NCBI RefSeq assembly: GCF_008974325.1
Contig: NZ_BKCG01000001.1
Coordinates: 248,001-312,000 of the forward strand
Source: Patiriisocius marinus
GTDB lineage: Bacteria > Bacteroidota > Bacteroidia > Flavobacteriales > Flavobacteriaceae
Reading direction: 5' to 3'
DNA length: 64,000 bases
Positions 9,273 through 33,118 of this stretch are shown piece by piece (position 1 is the stretch's first letter; the number at the start of each line of letters is the position of its first letter). Below the pieces are notes generated by a model. The model saw nothing but the letters and a program-made list of their open reading frames with translations, was not told where the DNA came from and did no database searches. Position numbers and translations under genes: made by a program.

Positions 9273-9346
<74 letters not shown>

Positions 9347-16647: not shown

Positions 16648-17043
16648 TTATTCTACTGGCTCTAAAATACCATTAGACGAGAATACTTCTGAATTTGCAA
16701 TAACATTCTGCTCATACTTAATAGCCTGTTTCTTTGGCTGTACTACCTCATCAGTTGTGTATACCCATCTGTGATTTAGAGTAATTTCTTCTCCTGTATC
16801 TTGGATTAGATACGTAAAAGGCTCACATTCTTCTTTAAAGATTCTGCCTTCCATTTCAGCACCTATTAAGGCTGAACAAGTATCTTCATCAAATGTTGAA
16901 GGTATAAATGCTCTTTTTGCAGTTGCGTAGAAATTGCCTGTCTCTTGAGACTTAACCATTTCAATGCCTCCTTGTAGTTCCAAAACAAAGAATGAAGTTC
17001 CATCTTCTTTGTCTCTTTGTTTGTAATTAATAATTCTTACCAT
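16648..17043 (-). CDS. Hypothetical protein, 131 aa
   Basis: No family recognised. The protein is mostly predicted beta-strand in the first 95 residues (VRIINYKQRDKEDGTSFFVL, KRAFIPSTFDED, GRIFKEECEPFTYLI), which could be an OB-like or other small barrel, followed by a polar tail. It contains no signal peptide. It is preceded by an unusually GC-rich leader (17044-17322) and is transcribed away from the defence operon. Confidence 0.6.
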   Translation of the reverse strand: MVRIINYKQRDKEDGTSFFVLELQGGIEMVKSQETGNFYATAKRAFIPSTFDEDTCSALIGAEMEGRIFKEECEPFTYLIQDTGEEITLNHRWVYTTDEVVQPKKQAIKYEQNVIANSEVFSSNGILEPVE

Positions 17044-17322
17044 AGTTTTATGAATTTTTGAGTTGATAAATAACCACGAAGAAAATTATAACAGTACAAC
17101 ATATACACCTCAACTATCACCTTGAGTTTGTTATCCTGCCTGTAAAATTTTCTTTCTATTAATGTGGTAGGGAGGTATTTCCTTTCCCAGAAATTCGTGG
17201 GGGTTTTGCACAAGGTATGGCAGGCACTCACAAAGCATCAAAAAAAATAATTTTTAAAATTTTTTCTTGAATAATTTATCTTATATTTGACATATTCTGA
17301 CAAGAATTAAAAAGACAAGACA
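17044..17322. other. Divergent intergenic region with GC-rich, structured leader on the minus strand
   Basis: Between 17130 and 17230 the base composition is much richer in G and C than the rest of the element. CCTGCC (17135-17140) can pair with GGCAGG (17219-17224), enclosing a second hairpin GGGAGG/CCTTTCCC (17170-17188). This could be the 5' leader RNA of the 131-residue gene. A 64-codon frame overlaps it on the minus strand but looks random. Near the right end, TTGACATATTCTGACA (17288-17303) precedes the XRE start and may be its promoter or operator. Confidence 0.4.
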
Positions 17323-17619
17323 ATGCAACTATCTGAGTTATTAAAACAGAAAAGAGAAAAAAAGCAACTATTAATGAGAGAAGTAGCCTCATTGGTAGAT
17401 GTTGATACTGCTATTATTAGTAAAATTGAAAAAGGAGATAGAAGACCTACAAAAGAACAATTACTAAAATATGCCACTGCTTTAGATATTGATTACAACA
17501 AATTGTTAACCCTTTGGTATAGTGATAAAATATACCATGAAATTAAAGAGGAATCTTTAGCATTAAAGATTTTGAAGGTAGCCGAAAAAAGAATTAAACA
17601 AGAATTAAAAAATACATAA
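17323..17619 (+). CDS. XRE-family controller protein of the defence operon, 98 aa
   Basis: An HTH_3 domain occupies residues about 6-62: LLKQKREKKQLLMREVASLV, VDTAIISKIEKGDRRPTKEQ and YATALDIDYNKLLTL. The C-terminal 35 residues form a charged helix. The gene lies 10 bases upstream of the type IIG enzyme and on the same strand, the standard place of a C (controller) protein that delays restriction until DNA is methylated. TGACA half-sites just upstream may be its binding site. The specific role is inferred from position. Confidence 0.85.
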   Translation: MQLSELLKQKREKKQLLMREVASLVDVDTAIISKIEKGDRRPTKEQLLKYATALDIDYNKLLTLWYSDKIYHEIKEESLALKILKVAEKRIKQELKNT

Positions 17620-17629
17620 GCCAACTTAT

Positions 17630-20600
17630 ATGTCATTATTTCAAACTTCTGTACTAAAACAGCAACTTAATTTACAAGATAAAGACAAGGTAAATAAAGC
17701 TTATAAAAAGTACGTTAAGTATTTTTTAAACCCTACTATACAAGACAATATACGTAGTTCTAAAGAAGAAGAATACCAAGGTATATTTCTAACAGAACTC
17801 TTTGTAAATGTATTAGATTATACTTTAAAGCCAAAAGCAGATTTTAACCTAGTAGCAGAGTATAAAAATCAAACTAATTCACGTAAAGCAGATGGTGCTA
17901 TCTTACACAATAATATTGCTGTTGGTGTAATAGAACTAAAAGGAACAAATACCAAAGATTTAGAAAGTATTCGTAAACAAGCATTTGATTATAAAGCAAA
18001 TCAAAAAGGTAGTATTTATGTTATTACCTCAAATTTTGAAAAATTACGTTTTTATATCAATGATGCTACAGAGTTTGAAGAGTTTAACCTTTTTGAGTTA
18101 ACTAGAGAGCAGTTTCCCTTATTCTATTTATGCTTACAAAAAGATAATTTACTAAACAATATACCACTACAAACAAAGGAAGCTTCTGTTGTAGAAGAAG
18201 AACAAATTACAAAGCAATTTTATAAAGATTATTCTTTATTTAAACGTGAGTTATATAGAGATTTAGTAAAACGAAATTCTAAAAGACTTAAAAACACACA
18301 AAACCAAACTGAAAATTCAGATAGTTTAACCCAAGAACAACAAGCAGAACTATTACGTTTAGAAAAAAATGTAAAACTCACACTTTTTAAAAAATCTCAA
18401 AAATTAATAGACAGATTCCTGTTTATCTTCTTTGCAGAAGATAGAGGTTTGTTACCAGCAAATAGTACTGAGCAGATATTAGACAAATGGAAAGCAGATA
18501 TAGACTTTGGAGATGAAAGACCTTTATACAACCTATTTAAACAATACTTTAGGTTTTTAGACCAAGGTAGGCAAGGCACAAGTAGTAGAGCAGAAATTTA
18601 CGCTTACAATGGAGGTTTATTTAAAGAAGACACCATTTTAGATAGTTTAGAATTAGACAATGATTTACTCTACACATACACTAAAAAACTAGCAGGATAT
18701 GATTTTGAAAGCCAAGTAGATGTTAATATACTAGGACATATTTTTGAAAACTCTTTAAATGAAATTGAAAGTGTAAATGCAGAAATTGAAGGTGGTGATT
18801 TTGATAAACAAAAATCTAAACGTAAAAAAGATGGTGTGTTTTACACACCAAAATACATTACCAAATACATTGTAGAAAACACTATTGGAAAGCTTTGTAC
18901 AGAAAAGAAAACAGCACTAAACCTTAAAGAAGAAGAATACTTTAAAGGCAGAAAAAACAGAAATAAAAGTACCATTACAAATTTAGTAGCCACACTAGAT
19001 AATTACAGAGATTGGCTACTACAACTCACTATATGCGACCCAGCTTGTGGCTCTGGAGCATTTTTAAACCAAGCTTTAGATTTTTTAATAAAAGAGCATA
19101 GTTATATAGACGAGTTAAAAACAAAAGTATTAGGTGGTGGTTTACAATTTAGCGATATAGAAAACACCATATTAGAAAACAATATTTATGGTGTAGATTT
19201 AAACGAAGAATCTGTAGAAATTGCAAAACTATCTCTTTGGTTAAGAACAGCACAACCACGTAGAAAATTAAATGATTTAAGTAGCAATATAAAATGTGGT
19301 AATTCTTTAATAGACAGCAAAGCAGTAGCAGGAGATAAAGCTTTTAATTGGGAAGAACAGTTTCCACAAGTATTTAAAAAAGGTGGTTTTGATGTAATTG
19401 TAGGGAATCCTCCTTATGTAAGGAATGAATTAATTTCACAATCTGATAAAAAGTTTCTAAATAAGAATTATAAAACCTTTACAGGGAAATCTGATTTGTA
19501 TGTATTCTTCTTTGAAAAGGCATATCACTTAATCAACAAAAAAGGTGAAGTAGGTTTTATTGTTTCAAGTAAATATACTAAAACAAAATATGGAAAGATT
19601 TTAATTGATTTTTTATTGAACAACACACATATCAGCACATTTATTGATTTTAAAGATTTAGATGTTTTTGAAGGTATAGTCGCTTACCCCTCTATAATAT
19701 TATTTAATAAAGAGTATAAAACAAATATTTCAAGCAATCTATTAGTAGTCACCAATGATAATTATTCAGAGATAGAAAATCAATTTATTAATTCAACAAA
19801 AGTAAATCAAAAAGACATATTTAATAAGCTTGGAAGTTGGTCTTCTAAAGGCTCAAATGATGAACTCTTTGAACTCTTAAAAAAAATAAACACCAATAAC
19901 TTAAAGTTGGAAGATTTTGGAATAAAGCCACAAGTTGGAATAAAAACAGGTTTAAATTCTGTATATATTTTTAATGCTAAAGAAATTCCAGAAATACTTG
20001 TTGAAAACGAGTTATTATCTAGTTATGTTGTTGGTAGAGAAGTTAAACGATATAACAACATAAATGAGCAAAACAAAATTTTATTCCCTTATGAAACTGT
20101 TGATAAAAAAATTAAACTAATACAAAATTTTGACAATAATGTCTGGGAGTATTTATCTTCTTTTAGAGATAAACTTTCTAGTAGAGCAATAATCGATAAA
20201 GGTATTGAAAAAGGCAATAAATCTTGGTATGAGTATCAACAGATAAAAACAGATTTTGATTATCAAAATGAATATATAATTTATCCTGACATATCTTCTG
20301 ATGTTAATTTCACTTTAGTTAAAGATTCATTAATGGATATGACTTGTTTTGGCATCCCTTCAAACTCAAAGTCTTTACTAGGTATATTAAATTCTAAACT
20401 AATAAAAACAATTTTAGAAATTGTTTGTGTGAAAGCAAGAGGTGGCTATTTAAGATTAAAGAATCAATATATATTAAATCTTCCAATACCTGAAAATTTT
20501 GAAAACTCAAATATTTCTAGAACAGTTGAAACTATTTTGAATCAAAACATAACCTTACAAGAGGTATCTAGTAAATTCCAAAGAACGCTACAAAGAAAGT

Positions 20601-20863
20601 TTGAACAACTAGAAAAACTACCTAAAAAATTAGAAAATTGGTATGAGTTATCTTTTGCAGGTTTTACAAAAGAATTAAAGAAGAAAAAAATAAAATTAAG
20701 TCTAGGAGAAGAAGCAGAATGGGAAGATTATTTTTTAGCAGAACAACAAAAAGCACAAGCTTTACAAACCCAAATAAACCAAACAGATAAAGAAATAGAT
20801 GCTATGGTGTATGAGCTGTATGGCTTAACAGAGGAAGAAATAGCAATTGTAGAAAATAGTTAA
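17630..20863 (+). CDS. Type IIG restriction-modification enzyme (Eco57I-like), 1077 aa
   Basis: This is a single-chain restriction endonuclease and adenine-N6 methyltransferase. The N-terminal nuclease shows a PD-(D/E)xK site, Asp88 (KADGAI) and Glu102-Leu-Lys104 (VIELKG). The central N6-adenine methyltransferase has the AdoMet motif DPACGSGAF (470-478) and catalytic NPPY (593-596). The C-terminal about 400 residues should be the DNA target recognition domain, ending in a coiled coil and a short helical tail. Length is usual for class IIG. The ATG follows the XRE controller by 10 bases and the next gene starts 2 bases after its stop. All motifs look intact, so it is probably active; the recognition site cannot be read from the sequence. 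Confidence 0.93.
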   Translation: MSLFQTSVLKQQLNLQDKDKVNKAYKKYVKYFLNPTIQDNIRSSKEEEYQGIFLTELFVNVLDYTLKPKADFNLVAEYKNQTNSRKADGAILHNNIAVGVIELKGTNTKDLESIRKQAFDYKANQKGSIYVITSNFEKLRFYINDATEFEEFNLFELTREQFPLFYLCLQKDNLLNNIPLQTKEASVVEEEQITKQFYKDYSLFKRELYRDLVKRNSKRLKNTQNQTENSDSLTQEQQAELLRLEKNVKLTLFKKSQKLIDRFLFIFFAEDRGLLPANSTEQILDKWKADIDFGDERPLYNLFKQYFRFLDQGRQGTSSRAEIYAYNGGLFKEDTILDSLELDNDLLYTYTKKLAGYDFESQVDVNILGHIFENSLNEIESVNAEIEGGDFDKQKSKRKKDGVFYTPKYITKYIVENTIGKLCTEKKTALNLKEEEYFKGRKNRNKSTITNLVATLDNYRDWLLQLTICDPACGSGAFLNQALDFLIKEHSYIDELKTKVLGGGLQFSDIENTILENNIYGVDLNEESVEIAKLSLWLRTAQPRRKLNDLSSNIKCGNSLIDSKAVAGDKAFNWEEQFPQVFKKGGFDVIVGNPPYVRNELISQSDKKFLNKNYKTFTGKSDLYVFFFEKAYHLINKKGEVGFIVSSKYTKTKYGKILIDFLLNNTHISTFIDFKDLDVFEGIVAYPSIILFNKEYKTNISSNLLVVTNDNYSEIENQFINSTKVNQKDIFNKLGSWSSKGSNDELFELLKKINTNNLKLEDFGIKPQVGIKTGLNSVYIFNAKEIPEILVENELLSSYVVGREVKRYNNINEQNKILFPYETVDKKIKLIQNFDNNVWEYLSSFRDKLSSRAIIDKGIEKGNKSWYEYQQIKTDFDYQNEYIIYPDISSDVNFTLVKDSLMDMTCFGIPSNSKSLLGILNSKLIKTILEIVCVKARGGYLRLKNQYILNLPIPENFENSNISRTVETILNQNITLQEVSSKFQRTLQRKFEQLEKLPKKLENWYELSFAGFTKELKKKKIKLSLGEEAEWEDYFLAEQQKAQALQTQINQTDKEIDAMVYELYGLTEEEIAIVENS

Positions 20864-20865
20864 AT

Positions 20866-21246
20866 ATGAAAAACCACACCAAAATATTTGAAATGGGAGC
20901 TGAAGGAGGTTCTATTGCATTATACCAATGTATAGATGCCAAAAACCAAGAGTGGTATTACCATAGCACCCAAGAAATAGGATATGAAGATTTAGGCATA
21001 GCAGGAGTTGATAAAACTTCTAAATACAGTAGGTCTATTGGAGAAGCTTATATAAAAATGCAAGGAGAATACAATAATGTAATGAGTTTATATCCTGTAA
21101 TGGTGCATGAAGATTATAAGTACATTATAAAAAGTTTATTAATACTCTATGTAACACATGAAAACAAAGATATAGATACCTATAATTGGGCAAATGCCTT
21201 AGGTATGGATATATCAGAGTTAGAAGAAGAATTGAAAAAAATATGA
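20866..21246 (+). CDS. Small unknown protein inside the defence operon, 126 aa
   Basis: I do not recognise a named family. The first half looks beta-rich with a Gly-rich turn (KIFEMGAEGGSIALYQC) and an aromatic strand (NQEWYYHSTQE); the second half is helical and ends in NWANALGMDISELEEELKKI. There is no signal peptide or membrane segment. It starts 2 bases after the type IIG stop and ends 8 bases before the McrB-like gene, so its presence is probably linked to one of these enzymes, for example as an inhibitor, specificity partner or immunity protein. That is inference from position. Confidence 0.7.
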   Translation: MKNHTKIFEMGAEGGSIALYQCIDAKNQEWYYHSTQEIGYEDLGIAGVDKTSKYSRSIGEAYIKMQGEYNNVMSLYPVMVHEDYKYIIKSLLILYVTHENKDIDTYNWANALGMDISELEEELKKI

Positions 21247-21254
21247 GTTAACAA

Positions 21255-24023
21255 ATGGCAGAAAAACAATTACAAAAAATTACAGCATCAGCCTTTTTTA
21301 AGTTGATTACTAAAGAGGATATTCAAGAAGCATATAGCCATATTACAAATAATACTATTAGCTTAAAACAGTCAACCAAATATTCTGTTTTAGTAAATAA
21401 CATGCCTTTTCCTCCTAAAGATTTTATTAGGGTTATAGCTAACTTAAAAAACTATTCTATTGATGAAGGTACTCTTTTTGGTGGACAAACTAATAAGCCA
21501 TTTGAAGCATTGGGGTATAAAGTAGTAAACAATCAAGATTACCCATTTTTTAATGCCTCTATCTTACAACCACAAATTAGAAAGTATCAAAATGCCATAG
21601 ATACAACAGATTGGTTAAAAATTCATGAAAGCTATAAATTCAATTTTATAAAATGGCTTGAAGATAATATAGATTTTGAAAATGACACCAATGAAGCTAT
21701 TAAATCAAAGATTGAAGAATCTCAGCAACAAGCTTTTAGTCCAAACTCTAACACAAAAGGAGTCAATTTTATTCAGACCATTACCAGATACCAAGATGAT
21801 TATATTACCATAGAGGACATAGAAAAATTAAGACATATAATTGCCAATGAAGTACATGAAAGCAAGGAGAATCTAACTCTATCTTTTGGCAGTTTCCCTA
21901 AAACAAGTGCTTATTTATGCTTGTTTGCACCCAATAGATTTATGGCTTATGATGGAGAATCTATACCAGCTTATGAATATTTATCTAAAGGCAGTACAAA
22001 TACCAATACAGCACCAAAAAGAAATTATAAAGCCTTTCAATTTTATCAAACATTTTATAAAAACATAAAAGAGCATCTAAAAGAAAGTCACCTAAACACA
22101 ACTGCTTTTACAGACCTATTACAGGTTGAAACACTCACAGAATTACATTGGAATTTTATTACACAAGATTTTTTACTCTATATAACAAGACAAATTATGA
22201 ATGCTAAAGTACCTGCTTATTATTGTGTAGGATTTCACTTTTATGGTGAGAACCCCACAAATCAATTACCAACATTTATAGAGAACAATATTTGGATTAA
22301 TGGCTATGATGACAAATTTGTTAATGTTGTAAATGAAGTTCCAATAGGCTCACTAATTGCAGCTAAAACATCATATACTATGAATGAAGATGACAAAACT
22401 ATTTCTGTTTTAGAGGTTCATTGCATAGGTGAAGTTTCTGGAAACAGCAAGGATGGGAAACACTTAAATGTAGATTGGCAAAAAAACTTTAAATCATTTA
22501 TATTAAAAAGAAAAGGAGGCTATAGAAGCACTATAAGCAAAGTACATAACCAAACTAATATTGATGCAATTTTTTACAAAAATGATACTGATGAAGAATT
22601 AATTGAAGATGAAAACAAAGAAACTCAACAATATACTTTAAACCAAATTCTTTATGGTCCACCTGGCACAGGAAAGACCTATAAAACTAAAAAGTTAGCA
22701 GTAGAAATTATTGAAAATCAAGAGTATTCAGATGCACCAGAAGACAGAGAAATCATTTTAGAAAAATATTCTAAATATGTAGAAAGTGAGAACATCCACT
22801 TTACCACTTTCCACCAAAGCATGAGTTATGAAGATTTTATTGAGGGCATTAAACCTACATTGAATGAAGATGAAGAAAAAGAATTAAGTTATGAAATACA
22901 AGATGGAATTTTTAAGTCAATTTGTAATCAAGCAAAAAAAAATAAAAACAGTATAAAAAAAGATACTGGTACAATACTGCAAATTGAACCTTTTGATACA
23001 GCATGGAATTATTTAGTAGAATATATTACAGAAAAGTTATCCAATACTGAAGTTCCAACATTTAATACATTAACCCATAAGCAGGTTAATGCTGTTGGTA
23101 TTACAGACAAAGGTAATTTACTCTTTAAACCATCAGCAGGTAGTGATTTAGAATATATCATATCCTATAATAGAACAAAAAAGTTATTTAATGCATTTCC
23201 AGATTTAAGCCTTATAAATAATATAGATAAGGAATTTAGGCAGGTTATTGGTGGTTCAAATTCCACTGCTTATTGGAGTGTTCTAAATTACTTACATCAT
23301 TGGATTGAAGAAAACCAAGATAAAATAGTCATAGAAGAAATAACTGATATTCCTACTAAAAATCAAAACTATGTTCTTATTATAGATGAGATAAATAGAG
23401 GAAATGTGTCTGCAATTTTTGGAGAATTAATTACTCTTATTGAAACAGATAAAAGAACAGGTGAAAATGAAGCTATTAGTATTACATTACCTTATTCTAA
23501 AACTAAGTTTTCTGTTCCTAATAATGTGTTTATTATTGGCACAATGAATACAGCAGACAGAAGTGTAGAAGCTTTAGATACAGCATTAAGAAGAAGGTTT
23601 TCTTTTGAAGAAATAGCACCTAACCCACAACTGCTAATAGGCTTAAACTACAAAGAAGTTGATTTAGAAAAACTACTTTATGCTATAAACCAAAGAATAG
23701 AAATTCTAGTAGATAAAGACCACCAAATAGGACATTCTTACTTTTTTAGCATTAATAATTTTGATGATTTAAAGTTGGTTTTTAAAGATAAAATTATTCC
23801 TCTTTTAGAAGAATATTTTTATGGTGATTTTGGTAAAATTGGTTTGGTACTGGGTGAAAATTTTATTGAACAACAAAATGTTAAGAACAAATCTATTTTA
23901 GCCCCATTTAAAAATTATGATGATTTAGATTTTGTTGCTGATAAAAAGATTTTCAAGCTAAAACCTATTGATAATATGGAAGTTTTAGATTTTATTTCAA
24001 TTTACCAAAAAGCAGAGTCATAA
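21255..24023 (+). CDS. McrB-like AAA+ GTPase with novel N-terminal sensor region, 922 aa
   Basis: The C-terminal half is the McrB-type motor of modification-dependent restriction: Walker A GPPGTGKT (468-475), Walker B IIDEINRG (Asp711, Glu712), and the McrB signature GTMNTADRS (762-770) followed by ALRRRF. The N-terminal 460 residues lack the E. coli McrB DNA-binding domain. Residues about 40-95 (YSVLVNNMPFPPKDFI, GTLFGGQTNKPFEALGY) resemble the head domain of ScoMcrA-like proteins. Residues about 330-430 (WINGYDDKFVNVVNEVPIGS, VLEVHCIGEV, LNVDWQ) resemble an EVE/PUA-like module, a fold used to read modified bases; both calls are tentative. The McrC gene starts at the next base after its stop. 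Confidence 0.88.
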   Translation: MAEKQLQKITASAFFKLITKEDIQEAYSHITNNTISLKQSTKYSVLVNNMPFPPKDFIRVIANLKNYSIDEGTLFGGQTNKPFEALGYKVVNNQDYPFFNASILQPQIRKYQNAIDTTDWLKIHESYKFNFIKWLEDNIDFENDTNEAIKSKIEESQQQAFSPNSNTKGVNFIQTITRYQDDYITIEDIEKLRHIIANEVHESKENLTLSFGSFPKTSAYLCLFAPNRFMAYDGESIPAYEYLSKGSTNTNTAPKRNYKAFQFYQTFYKNIKEHLKESHLNTTAFTDLLQVETLTELHWNFITQDFLLYITRQIMNAKVPAYYCVGFHFYGENPTNQLPTFIENNIWINGYDDKFVNVVNEVPIGSLIAAKTSYTMNEDDKTISVLEVHCIGEVSGNSKDGKHLNVDWQKNFKSFILKRKGGYRSTISKVHNQTNIDAIFYKNDTDEELIEDENKETQQYTLNQILYGPPGTGKTYKTKKLAVEIIENQEYSDAPEDREIILEKYSKYVESENIHFTTFHQSMSYEDFIEGIKPTLNEDEEKELSYEIQDGIFKSICNQAKKNKNSIKKDTGTILQIEPFDTAWNYLVEYITEKLSNTEVPTFNTLTHKQVNAVGITDKGNLLFKPSAGSDLEYIISYNRTKKLFNAFPDLSLINNIDKEFRQVIGGSNSTAYWSVLNYLHHWIEENQDKIVIEEITDIPTKNQNYVLIIDEINRGNVSAIFGELITLIETDKRTGENEAISITLPYSKTKFSVPNNVFIIGTMNTADRSVEALDTALRRRFSFEEIAPNPQLLIGLNYKEVDLEKLLYAINQRIEILVDKDHQIGHSYFFSINNFDDLKLVFKDKIIPLLEEYFYGDFGKIGLVLGENFIEQQNVKNKSILAPFKNYDDLDFVADKKIFKLKPIDNMEVLDFISIYQKAES

Positions 24024-25259
24024 ATGCCAAACAAAAACCTTATACAAGTTTTTGAATATCAAAAATTAAGATTTACTGATACAAATGATTTTAAAGAACA
24101 TCATTTTAAAGCATTGGTAAAATTTAATGAAGAAAATGACAATAAGTATTTTAAACCTATTTACAATGGTATTCAGTTTGGAAGTTATGTAGGAGTTCTT
24201 CAAATAGGAGGATTAACTATTGAGATATTACCAAAGGCAGACAAAATTGATAATAGTAACCAACAAGAAAAAGATACTTGGCAAAGTGTTTTATTACATA
24301 TGCTTAGAGTATGTAATAAAATTCAAGTAGAAACAGTTTCAGAAACACAACTTAAAAAAAGATACCATTCTATTTTAGAAGCCTATTTTGCTATGTATTT
24401 AGAAGAAATAGAACATCTTGTTAAAAGAGGCTTAGTTAAAAATTACAGAAGAGTTAAAAGCAATCAATTAGCCATAAAGGGCAAACTTGTATTTGCACAA
24501 AACATACAAAAAAACACAGTTCACAAAGAAAGATTTTATTGTGAGCATCAAGTGTATGACAAAGACCATTTAATTCATCAAATTTTATTAAGAGGGTTAC
24601 AGGTTTTAGAATCTTTAAACACCTCTCATTTATCAGATAAAATTAATAGGCTATTATTTCAGTTTGATGAGGTAAAACACATAACTGTTAATGCTAATCA
24701 TTTTAAAAAAATAAAGCTAAACAGAAAATCTCAACCTTATGATAGAGCTTTGAGTATTGCAAAAATGTTAATTCTTAATTATTCCCCAAATATAAGTTTT
24801 GGTCAAGATAACATGCTTACACTTTTGTTTGATATGAATATGCTTTGGGAAGAGTATATTTTTAGAACCTTAAATAAACATAAACCTTTTGGTTATGAAG
24901 TTTCTTTTCAAAATTCTGACACCTTTTGGGAGCATAAAACCATTAGACCAGATATAGTAATAACAAATACTAAAAGTGAAAATTTTGTAATTGATACCAA
25001 GTGGAAAATTGTAGAATCTAATAACCCTTCTGATAATGATTTAAAACAAATGTTTGTATATAATCTTCATTGGAAATCTAAAAAAAGCATATTGCTTTAC
25101 CCTCAGGTTAATCAGAGAGATAGTGAGTTTGGGAATTACTTTTATAAGCATCTTGAAAACAGTCAAAATCAATGCAAATTAGGATTTGTTAGTGTTTTAG
25201 AAAATGGTAGCATAAAAAAAGGGAATATATTAAGTGATGAAATTTTTGATAAATTATAA
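24024..25259 (+). CDS. McrC-like nuclease subunit, 411 aa
   Basis: McrC joins the McrB ring, stimulates its GTPase and carries the nuclease. The C-terminal PD-(D/E)xK site is visible as RPDIVI (Asp310) and VIDTKWK (Asp324, Lys326). The typical McrC stretch DMNMLWEEYIFRTL precedes it. The N-terminal about 200 residues match the McrC stalk/finger region (QFGSYVGVLQIGGLTIEILP). The gene directly follows mcrB with no spacer, and the next gene starts 3 bases after its stop. Motifs look complete, so the pair should be functional. Confidence 0.92.
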   Translation: MPNKNLIQVFEYQKLRFTDTNDFKEHHFKALVKFNEENDNKYFKPIYNGIQFGSYVGVLQIGGLTIEILPKADKIDNSNQQEKDTWQSVLLHMLRVCNKIQVETVSETQLKKRYHSILEAYFAMYLEEIEHLVKRGLVKNYRRVKSNQLAIKGKLVFAQNIQKNTVHKERFYCEHQVYDKDHLIHQILLRGLQVLESLNTSHLSDKINRLLFQFDEVKHITVNANHFKKIKLNRKSQPYDRALSIAKMLILNYSPNISFGQDNMLTLLFDMNMLWEEYIFRTLNKHKPFGYEVSFQNSDTFWEHKTIRPDIVITNTKSENFVIDTKWKIVESNNPSDNDLKQMFVYNLHWKSKKSILLYPQVNQRDSEFGNYFYKHLENSQNQCKLGFVSVLENGSIKKGNILSDEIFDKL

Positions 25260-25262
25260 AAC

Positions 25263-26726
25263 ATGCAAATCACCAAAACAGATTTTATACACTACCTAAA
25301 CTGCCCAGAATCTTTGTGGTTGCTTAAAAACAAACCAGAAGCTTACAGCCAATACAAAGGAAAGTTTTCTTTGTTTCTTGAAAAGCTTATAAAAGAGGGT
25401 TATGAAGTTGAGGAGTATGCTAAGTTATTATTTTCTAATGGTATAAATCTACCTGAAAATTCCACACCAGAATTTACTAAAAAGCAATTAGCATCTATTA
25501 ATACTGTGTTTTTTCAACCCTCATTTTCTACACCAAAAGGTGTGTTTGCAAGAATTGATGTATTAGAAAAGTTGGCTAATGGTAGTTATCATATTTATGA
25601 AATAAAATCTGCTGTAAGTGTAAAGAAAGAAAAATTAGAAGATGCTTGTTTTCAAAAATATGTGTTGCAAGAATGTGGTTATACAGTTTCAAAAGTGTCT
25701 ATCATTCATTTAAACAAGGAATATGTTAGGCAAGGCACTATTAACCCTGAATACTTATTAGAAATTACAGAAGTTACAGAGCAAATAGAAGGTATCTATT
25801 CTTCTGTAGTAAATGAGATTAATGCAGCTTCAAATTTAATTAACAAAGAAGTTATTAATGAAGCTGAATGTAGTAGCAGATATAAAACAAGGTCTAATCA
25901 TTGTGATACTTTTAAATACTTTAATAAAGATGTTCCAGAATATAGCATTTATGAAATAGGTAGAATTTCAGCCAAAAAAATAGGGCAATTAGTAGATAAT
26001 AGTCATTTAAGTATTTTAGATATTCCTTTAGATTTTGAGTTAAGTACAAAACAACAATTACAAGTAGAATCTGTTAGGCAAGAATTGGTAATAATCAATA
26101 AACCTGCAATAGATAAAACCTTAGACAATCTTAAATTTCCTCTACATTTTGTAGATTATGAAACTTTTCCTACTGCTATTCCTAAGTTAGATAATATGAG
26201 TCCTCATAACCATTTAACATTTCAGGTATCTATCCATACCATGCAAGAAAATGGAGAATTAACTCATTTTGAATGGTTAGGTAAAAAAATAGAACAGCCT
26301 GCTGAAATGCTACAACAAATGCAAGATTTCACAGATGCAACAGGTACTTTTATTTCTTGGTATGCCCCTTTTGAAAGAGGTAGAAATGAAGATATGGCAA
26401 ATTGGATTTCTGGTTTTGAAGATTACCTAAACTATATGAATGCTAATATGTTTGATTTAATGGATGTTTTTAAAACAGACTATGTAGATTATAGGTTTCA
26501 TGGTTCTACTTCTATTAAAAAAGTATTGCCTGTTTTATGCCCACAATTTTCGTATTCAGATTTAGCAGTGCAAGATGGCACAATGGCATTAGACACTTGG
26601 GGAAGAATGGTAACAGACCCTAATTTTAATGAAGATGTTGAGCAGACCAGAAAAAATTTATTAGCCTATTGTAAATTAGACACTTTGGCTATGGTAGAGA
26701 TTTATAAGGTTTTAAAACAGTTATAA
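25263..26726 (+). CDS. DUF2779-like fusion: RecB/Cas4-type nuclease plus DEDD exonuclease domain, 487 aa
   Basis: The N-terminal half follows the Cas4/RecB nuclease plan: MQITKTDFIHYLNCPESLWL (an early Cys14), then RIDVLE (Asp99) and YEIKSA (Glu113, Lys115). A Cys-containing stretch later (EAECSSRYKTRSNHC) may hold the metal or Fe-S ligands known in Cas4-like enzymes. The C-terminal half shows RNase H-like exonuclease motifs: HFVDYETFPT (Asp298, Glu300), YAPFERGRNEDM, and AYCKLDTLAMVEIYK as the last acidic motif. This is the DUF2779 layout, which is known from scattered bacteria. Its tight position after McrC makes it a likely third nuclease of the same defence locus. Confidence 0.82.
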   Translation: MQITKTDFIHYLNCPESLWLLKNKPEAYSQYKGKFSLFLEKLIKEGYEVEEYAKLLFSNGINLPENSTPEFTKKQLASINTVFFQPSFSTPKGVFARIDVLEKLANGSYHIYEIKSAVSVKKEKLEDACFQKYVLQECGYTVSKVSIIHLNKEYVRQGTINPEYLLEITEVTEQIEGIYSSVVNEINAASNLINKEVINEAECSSRYKTRSNHCDTFKYFNKDVPEYSIYEIGRISAKKIGQLVDNSHLSILDIPLDFELSTKQQLQVESVRQELVIINKPAIDKTLDNLKFPLHFVDYETFPTAIPKLDNMSPHNHLTFQVSIHTMQENGELTHFEWLGKKIEQPAEMLQQMQDFTDATGTFISWYAPFERGRNEDMANWISGFEDYLNYMNANMFDLMDVFKTDYVDYRFHGSTSIKKVLPVLCPQFSYSDLAVQDGTMALDTWGRMVTDPNFNEDVEQTRKNLLAYCKLDTLAMVEIYKVLKQL

Positions 26727-26744
26727 TTACTTAAAACTAAAAAA

Positions 26745-27019
26745 ATGACAATAGAAGAATTAAAAGCAATTTGGGACTATACAAGTATTTTAGTAGATAA
26801 AAAAACATTTTTCTGTATGGAACTATATAAAAACATTGCTAGTTATACGATAAAAAAAAATTTTTAATTATTACTTTGTTTGATAGTTCCTTTTACTCAA
26901 AAGATGAGTCAGTTGATAAATATATAGAAGAGTCAGTAAGGAAAAATATAATTGCAGTAGCTTTAGACTATGAAAATGATGTTGAAAATTTTGAAATTAC
27001 CTTTGATGGTAGATTTTAA
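26745..27019 (+). pseudogene. Small gene interrupted by a -1 frameshift at an A9T5 run
   Basis: From the ATG at 26745 the frame runs 40 residues (MTIEELKAIWDYTSILVDKK...) and stops at 26865. Moving to the -1 frame at the run of nine A and five T (26852-26865) continues for about 50 more residues (FLIITLFDSSFYSKDESVDK..., ending ITFDGRF) to a stop at 27017-27019. The two parts make a coherent acidic protein of about 90 residues, predicted alpha/beta. Either the gene is broken, the homopolymer was miscounted, or ribosomes slip at the A-run. It is the last gene of the defence operon, just before a terminator. Confidence 0.65.
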
Positions 27020-31658: not shown

Positions 31659-32870
31659 TCACTTCTTTTTCTTTAGTTTTTTACTCAACTTACTCATCTG
31701 ACTGCTTACCTTATGCTGAACCACCTTAGCATAATGCCTTTGAGTTATTGAAATACTTGAATGACCTAACAGTTCTGAAACTATCTCAATTGGAATATCA
31801 TTATACAACAATACTGTAGTAGCAAATGTCTTTCTTGCTATATGATGAGTTAACCTTTTGTCTATTTCTACTAATTCTGCAATCTCCTTTAAATAAGAAT
31901 TGAATTTTTGATTACTTATTATAGGCAACAACTTACTTTCATCTTTGTATTTGTCTATTATACTTGATGCTGTAGGTAATAAAGGAATAGATATTTTTGA
32001 TTTAGTTTTTTGCCTCATCATTTGAATCCAAACACCACCATCAAAACCTTTGATTAAATGCTCTTCTCTAAGGCTAGACATTTCTTGATATGCCAATCCT
32101 GTATAACAACAGAAAATGAACATATCTTTTACTTGATTCAATCTAGTCTGTCTGAAAGTGTGATTTTCGAGTTTATCTAATTCTTTTTGATTTAGGTAAA
32201 CTACTTTACTTTCATATTTTTTAGGTTTGTAAAGTATGAATGGGTCTTTCTTCAAATAGCCTTTTGCTAGAGCTAATTTGATAATCTTTCTAACACGTTG
32301 AATACTCTTATTAATAGTAATCTGCTTTTGTTTCTTTTCAGATTTTAAATAGAAATCAAAATCGTCTAAAAAGTTTTGATTGATAGACTCCAGTAGTATA
32401 TCTCCTTTCTTGTATTGGAATCTTATAAAGTTTGAAACATGGTTTCTAGCCTCTGTAAACTTGTTATAAGTAGACTTTGAATACTCAACACCTATTAGCT
32501 TCTTCATTCTATTGTTATGCAATTCAAACACCTCTAAAAGCGTTTTATTTGCCTTTACATTCTTTCCTACATACTGTAAGTAGATGTCCTCTACATCAAA
32601 ACTCTCATTGTTAACTTGTAGCAACAAAAAAGCCTGATTAACTTTTTGCTTAATCAGGCTCAAATGAGTATTAATGTTTTCATTTTCTTTATTGAGAGGT
32701 ATTGCTTTTTGTTTTTTACTGTTCCAACAATCTACAACAGTAAATAAGCCTGTAGAGAATACCTTTCTTTTCTTTAAATATGTAATTCTACACCTTAATG
32801 GTGCTGTACCTTTTGAGTTTGCATTTATTTTATCTAACACAAACAATATGCTTAATTTACTGTTATTCAT
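31659..32870 (-). CDS. int: Tyrosine integrase of the element, 403 aa
   Basis: Site-specific recombinase of the tyrosine family in the Bacteroidota subgroup. The N-terminus has an Arm-binding region (LSILFVLDKINANSKGTAPL) and the middle a SAM-like core-binding domain (about 110-210). Catalytic residues in the C-terminus are HIAR (His343, Arg346), LGH (His370) and the nucleophile in RHYAK (Tyr380). Box I reads TGLAYQEMSSL with Ala where most relatives have Arg; CTnDOT integrase also lacks this Arg. The gene lies 176 bases from the right attachment repeat and points away from it, the usual arrangement for tRNA-targeting elements. Confidence 0.93.
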   Translation of the reverse strand: MNNSKLSILFVLDKINANSKGTAPLRCRITYLKKRKVFSTGLFTVVDCWNSKKQKAIPLNKENENINTHLSLIKQKVNQAFLLLQVNNESFDVEDIYLQYVGKNVKANKTLLEVFELHNNRMKKLIGVEYSKSTYNKFTEARNHVSNFIRFQYKKGDILLESINQNFLDDFDFYLKSEKKQKQITINKSIQRVRKIIKLALAKGYLKKDPFILYKPKKYESKVVYLNQKELDKLENHTFRQTRLNQVKDMFIFCCYTGLAYQEMSSLREEHLIKGFDGGVWIQMMRQKTKSKISIPLLPTASSIIDKYKDESKLLPIISNQKFNSYLKEIAELVEIDKRLTHHIARKTFATTVLLYNDIPIEIVSELLGHSSISITQRHYAKVVQHKVSSQMSKLSKKLKKKK

Positions 32871-32887
32871 AATGATGTATTTTTATA

Positions 32888-32937
32888 AGGGTATGCCTTT
32901 TTTAAATTAGGGTATGCCTTTTTCTGTGCCTTTTTTT
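32888..32937 (+). repeat. Direct repeats upstream of the integrase
   Basis: AGGGTATGCCTTTTT occurs at 32888-32902 and 32909-32923, 21 bases apart, with a third partial copy TGTGCCTTTTTTT at 32925-32937. They lie between the integrase start and the right attachment site. Two-turn spacing fits arm-type sites for the integrase or sites for an excision factor. Confidence 0.5.

Positions 32938-33044: not shown

Positions 33045-33118
<74 letters not shown>

What the first reader, a model, noticed from the sequence alone, without database searches (positions are those of the whole stretch)
17323..27019. Compact multi-nuclease defence operon: XRE, type IIG, unknown, McrB, McrC, Cas4/DEDD fusion, small frameshifted gene
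Seven genes lie with 0-18 base gaps and one strand, joining a methylating restriction enzyme with a modification-dependent McrBC-like complex and a third nuclease. This union would hit unmodified DNA and DNA with foreign modification together. McrBC and type IIG are known separately; this fixed set with the DUF2779-like nuclease and the 126-residue protein may be a distinct composite system.
Basis: partly seen in the sequence, partly recalled or inferred. Interest (0 to 1): 0.75.

Follow-up and report, generated by a model that had tools for sequence, protein, structure and literature searches.

The report
Swappable restriction-gene cargo in mobile element
A bacterium carries, inside a piece of mobile DNA lodged in a tRNA gene, a tight row of genes for three different DNA-cutting enzymes; the row is real, but its members are interchangeable modules that related bacteria mix in other combinations, and one of them, a two-part nuclease, often sits beside restriction systems of quite different kinds.

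Summary
The operon is real: six intact + strand genes (XRE regulator, type IIG enzyme, 126-aa protein, McrB, McrC, Cas4-like/DnaQ-like DUF2779 nuclease) and one broken small gene, gaps 0-19 bases. It lies in a 23.8-kb integrative element between perfect 71-base tRNA-Met repeats. The claim of a fixed composite system fails: none of 298 other family genomes has all four of IIG, 126-aa protein, McrB and DUF2779, and of 28 other IIG loci 2 carry McrBC in the operon, none DUF2779. The operon fills a cargo slot between two conserved element genes; other copies of the slot hold type I, type III or MmeI-type enzymes, a Dcm-type methylase and other defence genes. Two modules stand out. DUF2779 shares an operon with a restriction-modification protein in 17 of 25 related loci, with copies about 93% identical beside unrelated systems; this was not seen in three distant plasmid relatives. 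The XRE gene carries an operator (GACA-N6-GACAAG, 32-34 nt before the ATG) in 9 of 10 homologues heading different systems. Likely function, untested: stacked restriction of unmodified and foreign-modified DNA, with the nuclease digesting cut ends.

The parts
9273..9343 (-). 71-base perfect direct repeat, left end of the element (tRNA-Met copy 9273-9346)
33045..33115 (-). 71-base perfect direct repeat, right end of the element (tRNA-Met copy 33045-33118)
31659..32870 (-). integrase of the element (403 aa, tyrosine-recombinase-like, read by eye), next to the right repeat
   Evidence: label not from a family search
16648..17043 (-). 131-aa conserved element gene, left anchor of the cargo slot; no Pfam match
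17289..17304 (+). operator GACATATTCTGACAAG, its first base 34 bases before the XRE start codon
17323..17619 (+). XRE-type regulator (98 aa), probable R-M controller protein
17630..20863 (+). type IIG restriction-methyltransferase (1077 aa): D88-E102-K104 nuclease motif, DPACGSG at 470, NPPY at 593, TaqI-like specificity domain
20866..21246 (+). 126-aa protein of unknown fold
21255..24023 (+). McrB-like NTPase (922 aa): Walker A at 468, LIIDEIN at 708, NTAD at 765; unassigned N-terminal 440 residues
24024..25259 (+). McrC-like nuclease (411 aa), RPD...DTK motif at 308-326
25263..26726 (+). DUF2779 nuclease (487 aa): Cas4/EXO5-like N-terminal half, DnaQ-like 3'-5' exonuclease C-terminal half
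26746..27019 (+). broken remnant of a small gene; an intact 97-aa homologue lies at the same slot position in L195
27051..28085 (-). DUF3871 gene, right anchor of the cargo slot

Best explanation
A defence-cargo slot of a tRNA-Met integrative element is loaded with a stack of independent restriction modules under one XRE controller. Inferred action: the type IIG enzyme methylates its site in the host and cuts DNA lacking that mark; McrBC, using nucleotide-driven assembly and translocation, cuts DNA carrying a foreign modification that the IIG mark does not mimic; the DUF2779 protein, with one Cas4/EXO5-like and one DnaQ-like active site, digests the ends that these cuts expose; the XRE protein binds two GACA half-sites before its own gene and so times expression when the element enters a new cell. 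Shown: gene content, intact motifs, slot, element ends, operator conservation, changing partners. Inferred: every activity, the order of action, the modification that McrB reads, and the role of the 126-aa protein.
For: Element ends: 71-base repeat, spacing 23,772. Slot: of 20 DUF3871 stretches fetched, 14 have the 131-aa anchor on the far side of a cargo block; 77 of the 80 cargo ORFs of 90 aa or more include N6_Mtase 6, N6_N4_Mtase 4, Eco57I 3, HSDR_N 4, Methylase_S 4, GmrSD_N 4, Dcm-type methylase 1, HamA 1 (25 of 52 families shown; one protein can match several). tRNA-Met in 3 of 12 stretches scanned. DUF2779 in an operon with an R-M protein in 17 of 25 loci at 50% identity or more, partner switching at about 93% identity, both catalytic sets invariant in 31 sequences. 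Operator in 9 of 10 XRE homologues. IIG motif D88, E102, K104 invariant in 22.
Against: No activity tested. 6 of 25 DUF2779 loci have no R-M neighbour seen and 2 have only one on the other strand. Of six relatives at 29-32% identity only two (L143 McrBC; L144 GmrSD and a methylase-like protein) sit in a defence operon, and of three plasmid relatives at 30-34% none has an annotated R-M gene in its operon. One close XRE homologue (L205, 75%) lacks the operator. The R-M association yardstick rests on one genome and the loci are not independent. The slot is element-borne, so shared company may reflect a common landing site rather than joint action.
Confidence: 0.7

Rival explanations
1. One obligate composite system: all genes needed together.
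For: Gaps of 0-10 bases and one strand; an IIG-McrBC operon recurs in G080 and G129 and R-M with McrBC and DUF2779 in L138.
Against: No other of 298 genomes has all four; no McrBC in the operon in 26 of 28 other IIG loci, some of them cut by contig ends or with broken genes; in G080 a Shedu-domain protein and an AAA ATPase lie between IIG and McrBC (Pfam), in G129 a gene with the same beginning as that Shedu protein and others, and the G129 McrB is divergent.
Confidence: 0.08
2. LlaJI-like arrangement: McrBC is the restriction arm for the IIG enzyme's own site and cuts when that site is unmodified, not when foreign marks are present.
For: LlaJI, an McrBC-related system with companion methyltransferases that acts on unmodified sites, is described in PMC12707154 (passages); here a methyltransferase shares the operon with McrBC.
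Against: The IIG protein has its own intact nuclease motif and is without McrBC in 26 of 28 loci; LlaJI has two methyltransferases, this operon one.
Confidence: 0.1
3. Co-location only: the slot collects defence genes that never interact, and DUF2779 is a separate solo defence gene.
For: Slot cargo varies widely; 6 of 25 DUF2779 loci have no R-M neighbour and three plasmid relatives none in the operon.
Against: DUF2779 keeps R-M company on many contigs, with different R-M types, at either end or inside of the operon.
Confidence: 0.2

Closest known systems
E. coli immigration control region and tRNA-anchored hotspot 37 (PMC12707154, passages)
   Same: Type I, McrBC, Mrr and GmrSD modules swapped between conserved boundary genes; hotspot 37 anchored by a tRNA and an integrase.
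   Different: Here the slot lies inside one integrative-element family, and type IIG, type III, DUF2779 and a shared controller-operator occur.
UvrD-Cas4-like fusion proteins beside type III Mod/Res (PMC5704561, passages)
   Same: Cas4-like nuclease with a proposed ancillary role near different R-M or methylase genes.
   Different: DUF2779 fuses the Cas4-like half to a DnaQ-like exonuclease instead of a helicase and joins types I, III, IIG and ISP.
DUF2779 as family F.17 of the RNase H-like superfamily (PMC3985635, passages)
   Same: Predicted 3'-5' exonuclease fold with a DUF83 (Cas4-like) part.
   Different: The two passages seen give no link to R-M systems.
CoCoNuT type IV superoperons (PMC11090510, passages)
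   Same: McrBC-type genes in predicted superoperons with type I R-M and other restriction systems.
   Different: No HEPN, SF1 helicase or TerY-like partner among the six proteins here.
R-M controller proteins, e.g. HsdC binding (GTGTTAN5)2 (PMC5282649, abstract and outline)
   Same: Controller protein of an R-M operon with direct-repeat half-sites upstream.
   Different: Half-site GACA with N6 spacing; one kind of controller-operator pair heads IIG, MmeI-type and type III operons.
Conflict between a mobile R-M system and a methylation-dependent enzyme (PMC8989522, abstract and outline)
   Same: R-M and modification-dependent nuclease in one cell must not target each other.
   Different: There two separate loci; here one operon.

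Membership tests
Type IIG restriction enzyme | Nuclease, methyltransferase and specificity domains in one chain | tested here: met
   (nuclease by motif only)
Type IIG restriction enzyme | Cleaves at a distance from, and methylates, its own site | not testable with these tools
   needs methylome or enzyme assay
McrBC type IV system | McrB-type AAA+ NTPase motifs with an adjacent McrC PD-(D/E)XK nuclease | tested here: met
McrBC type IV system | N-terminal reader of modified bases in McrB | tested here: inconclusive
   no convincing family or PDB sequence match before residue 440; few relatives align there
McrBC type IV system | Modification-dependent cleavage | not testable with these tools
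   needs plasmid or phage restriction assay
LlaJI-like McrBC system | Two methyltransferases with the McrBC pair | tested here: not met
   one methyltransferase in the operon
CoCoNuT | Companion HEPN/SF1-helicase/TerY genes | tested here: not met
   no such family among the six proteins
CoCoNuT | Long coiled coils in McrB | not tested
   no coiled-coil prediction run
DUF2779 (PF11074) | PF11074 match, DnaQ-like exonuclease residues and PD-(D/E)XK residues | tested here: met
   D99, E113, K115, Q131 and D298, E300, D398, Y469, D473 invariant in 31; C-terminal fold, N-terminal half Foldseek
Fe-S-bearing subset of Cas4/EXO5-like nucleases (cluster recalled, not from a call) | Four cysteines in the cluster positions | tested here: not met
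   window has C14, C203, C214 but S205, where nearly all close relatives have C; so not filed there
R-M controller protein | Small HTH protein with repeated half-sites upstream of its own gene | tested here: met
R-M controller protein | Binds the site and times expression | not testable with these tools
   needs binding and reporter assay
Defence island with swapped cargo | Conserved anchors, variable defence content | tested here: met
   14 of 20 stretches plus the window

The most novel reading that the evidence does not exclude
The DUF2779 protein is, at least in this branch of the family, a general partner of restriction: a two-active-site exonuclease (Cas4/EXO5-like plus DnaQ-like) that any R-M type can recruit to destroy DNA after the first cut, passed between systems as a cassette; together with the portable controller-operator this makes the slot a plug-in board for restriction modules.
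Probability: 0.45. Interest if true: 0.68.

Novelty: new variant of a known kind. Interest (0 to 1): 0.5.

Why it matters
It turns a supposed single composite system into testable modules. A nuclease that keeps company with R-M types I, III, IIG and ISP, and that matches only weak Cas4 and Cas1 models in PADLOC 2.0.0, bears on an open question: what finishes off phage DNA after restriction. The shared controller-operator would help explain how very different R-M systems can be swapped behind one kind of promoter without killing a new host.

Tried and rejected
Fixed composite system: rejected on co-occurrence. The 126-aa protein as a dedicated IIG or McrBC subunit: relatives lie 2 bases after an IIG (L115, residues 1-30 only), in a type III operon (L148, 62%), downstream of an HsdR gene (L149, broken frame), alone on the other strand 2.6 kb from a DUF2779 gene (L011), and a related domain is fused to P-loop kinase-like proteins (L215, L217; read by eye). 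Counts: 5 of 299 family genomes at E 0.001, 13 of 375 class genomes at E 0.01 with a three-row profile, most of these weak, own genome included in both. Its model (pLDDT 82, six sequences) gave no Foldseek match at E 0.001 or below and VIA Z 3.1 at best: fold left open. No match in plasmids or phages and none confirmed in viral contigs. Genome co-occurrence of the 126-aa protein with IIG (2 seen, 0.5 expected, p 0.077) and with DUF2779 (2 seen, 0.3 expected, p 0.024) rests on two genomes each, without correction for six tests. Sigma-70 and terminator scans: 53 promoter-like sites against 59 in shuffles, 1 terminator-like against 3.4, uninformative. Rfam: only the two tRNAs. DUF2779 outside this branch: 29 plasmid records, all under 60% identity; of three opened, Planktothrix L017 has a PAPS-reductase-family gene, a helicase and a phospholipase D-family gene near by, L018 and L019 have no annotated R-M gene in the operon; six phage records match only 16% of the query. 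The N-terminal half: the four Foldseek matches at E 0.001 or below are all EXO5, with low TM-scores (0.20-0.22 of the query) and rmsd near 10; the VIA rows cover the C-terminal half only. Operator background: in the own genome 4 matches against 2 for the reversed pattern, one of them at the XRE gene; in 11 genus genomes, own included, 21 matches against 37 for the reversed pattern, so the pattern alone is not specific; its fixed distance to the XRE start is. In 1.96 Mb of fetched, partly overlapping loci, 9 of 11 distinct matches lie at that distance.

Of 20 slot stretches, 3 lacked the second anchor (L197, L211, L212) and 3 had it within 1 kb without a cargo block (L206, L207, L214; arrangement not studied). 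Three of 80 cargo ORFs were left out of the Pfam scan. The 28 IIG loci are 27 loci from 26 of the 37 other genomes, plus L201. The 12 McrBC loci come from 10 of the 36 genomes, the own genome's second copy included; L118, L138, L143 and L153 had come in through IIG or DUF2779 as well. Two XRE hits at locus edges (L229, 41%; L230, the window itself) were set aside. N6_N4_Mtase proteins are called type III: a ResIII or EcoP15I-type domain was shown in L005, L007 and L138, in the others the label rests on the arrangement. Operons are same-strand runs with gaps up to 150 bases from my own longest-ORF caller.
Full report
What is there. Six uninterrupted genes and one broken one run on the + strand from 17323 to 27019 with gaps of 0 to 19 bases. 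Catalytic motifs are intact: D88-E102-K104 (invariant in 22 aligned IIG proteins), DPACGSG and NPPY in the IIG; Walker A, LIIDEIN and NTAD in McrB; RPD...DTK in McrC.

Where it lies. Two tRNA-Met copies, 23,772 bases apart, share a perfect 71-base repeat and an integrase gene lies next to the right one, so the operon rides on an integrative element of about 23.8 kb. The operon sits between a 131-aa gene and a DUF3871 gene, both on the other strand. DUF3871 relatives occur in 41 of 397 family genomes, own included. I fetched 20 stretches around them; in 14 the 131-aa gene lies at the far side of a cargo block. A Pfam scan of 77 of the 80 cargo ORFs of 90 aa or more found methylase, specificity and restriction subunits of type I, N6_N4 methylases with ResIII helicases, Eco57I and MmeI-type methylases, GmrSD, a Dcm-type methylase and one HamA. 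In L195, L148 and L005 a tRNA-Met gene lies in the stretch (3 of 12 scanned). The broken seventh gene has an intact homologue at the same place of the L195 slot, behind an MmeI-type cargo, so it belongs to the slot rather than to McrBC.

Is the set fixed? No. Among 299 family genomes, own included, matches were found for McrB in 36, IIG in 38, DUF2779 in 21 and the 126-aa protein in 5; only the own genome has all four, and among the other 298 no pairing except DUF2779 with the 126-aa protein (two genomes) passes p 0.05. Of 28 other IIG loci, 2 carry McrBC in the operon, both with further genes between (in G080 a SduA/Shedu domain and an AAA ATPase by Pfam), 3 carry a close XRE directly in front, none carries DUF2779, and one has a relative of the 126-aa protein reduced to 30 residues. 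Of 12 other McrBC loci, 6 have R-M genes in the operon: IIG in L118 and L153, type III in L138, type I in L151, L152 and L158; L158 is the second McrBC locus of the own genome. Four of the 12 had been fetched because of IIG or DUF2779 hits, which biases this share.

The DUF2779 nuclease. I compared 25 other loci at 50% identity or more (14, 11 after removing three duplicates). In 17 the gene shares an operon with an R-M protein: N6_N4 methylase or ResIII (type III or like it) in L003, L005, L007, L008, L010, L011, L014, L136, L138; type I in L016, L134, L139; MmeI-type in L009; IIG in L130; large single-chain ISP/IIG types in L004, L137, L141. L012 and L015 have a type I set near by on the other strand; in L006, L013, L129, L132, L135 and L140 I saw none. 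Copies 92.7-93.7% identical stand beside an EcoP15I-like type III (L007), other N6_N4 methylases (L008, L011) and an MmeI-type enzyme (L009). As a rough yardstick, the own genome has 6 N6_Mtase matches and no N6_N4_Mtase match in 3.56 Mb; if even 2% of genes lay in such operons, 17 of 25 would have p 1e-23, but the loci are related and the 2% is my assumption. Against generality: of six relatives at 29-32% only L143 (McrBC) and L144 (GmrSD, methylase-like protein) are in defence operons, and of three plasmid relatives at 30-34% none has an annotated R-M gene in the operon. The protein keeps D99, E113, K115, Q131 and D298, E300, D398, Y469, D473 invariant in 31 sequences. The AlphaFold model (pLDDT 92.9) matches human EXO5 in Foldseek (best E 1.3e-4, low TM-score), then the Cas4 protein SSO0001 (E 4e-3) and an Argonaute-associated Cas4 protein (E 6e-3); its residues 292-487 match family B polymerase exonuclease domains (Z 15.4, rmsd 3.2, 170 residues).

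The controller. I compared the XRE homologues found by tblastn in the fetched loci. The sequence GACA-N6-GACAAG stands 32-34 bases before the start codon in 9 of 10 distinct homologues: the window, L014, L195, L200, L209 and L213 (elements with at least one slot anchor) and three other IIG loci whose XRE is only 45-49% identical. L205 (75%) lacks it, and one hit at a locus edge (L229) could not be judged. In the window one match is seen against 0.06 expected, while at genome scale the pattern alone is at background.

How it probably works. Type IIG restriction of unmarked DNA, McrBC restriction of DNA with foreign marks, end digestion by DUF2779, and timing by the XRE protein. All activities are inferred from families. 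A constraint follows: McrB must not read the IIG mark; an R-M system in conflict with a modification-dependent enzyme is described in PMC8989522 (abstract and outline seen).

Literature. DUF2779 is held in 6 papers of the library, and no paper holds both DUF2779 and McrBC. PMC3985635 (passages) places DUF2779 among presumed 3'-5' exonucleases with a DUF83 part. PMC5704561 (passages) reports UvrD-Cas4 fusions beside type III R-M genes in an ancillary role. PMC12707154 (passages) describes swapped restriction cargo between anchors in enterobacteria, and LlaJI. PMC11090510 (passages) describes McrBC-type genes in predicted superoperons with R-M systems. PMC5282649 (abstract and outline) gives a controller with direct-repeat sites. 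I found no description of DUF2779 as an R-M partner in the searches, which cover open-licence papers only and of which I opened a few.

Verdict. The sequence shows a known kind of thing, a mobile defence island with stacked R-M and type IV modules, with two less known features that deserve work: a two-domain nuclease that changes partners and a portable controller-operator.

Noticed in passing
G000 contig C4, locus L158:512-10929: The same genome has a second McrBC pair, behind HsdS, HsdR and a Schlafen/AlbA-type protein with an N6 methylase just upstream: another R-M plus McrBC operon of a different type.
   Followed up: partly
L118 (G080) and L153 (G129): Operons in the order IIG, SduA-like (Shedu; Pfam in L118, by its beginning in L153), further genes, McrB, McrC; the G129 McrB has an EVE domain.
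   Followed up: partly
cargo set A5, probably L199: A HamA (Hachiman) protein is among the 77 slot cargo proteins scanned; by gene sizes probably in L199, not checked singly.
   Followed up: no
L215:1009-1842 and L217:997-1836: A relative of the 126-aa protein is fused behind a P-loop kinase-like domain (read by eye).
   Followed up: no
window 32880-32921: Two 21-base direct repeats, 86% alike, just beside the integrase end of the element, possibly integrase arm sites.
   Followed up: no
L164:5649-7910: Four similar 182-186-aa genes in tandem downstream of a type IIG gene.
   Followed up: no
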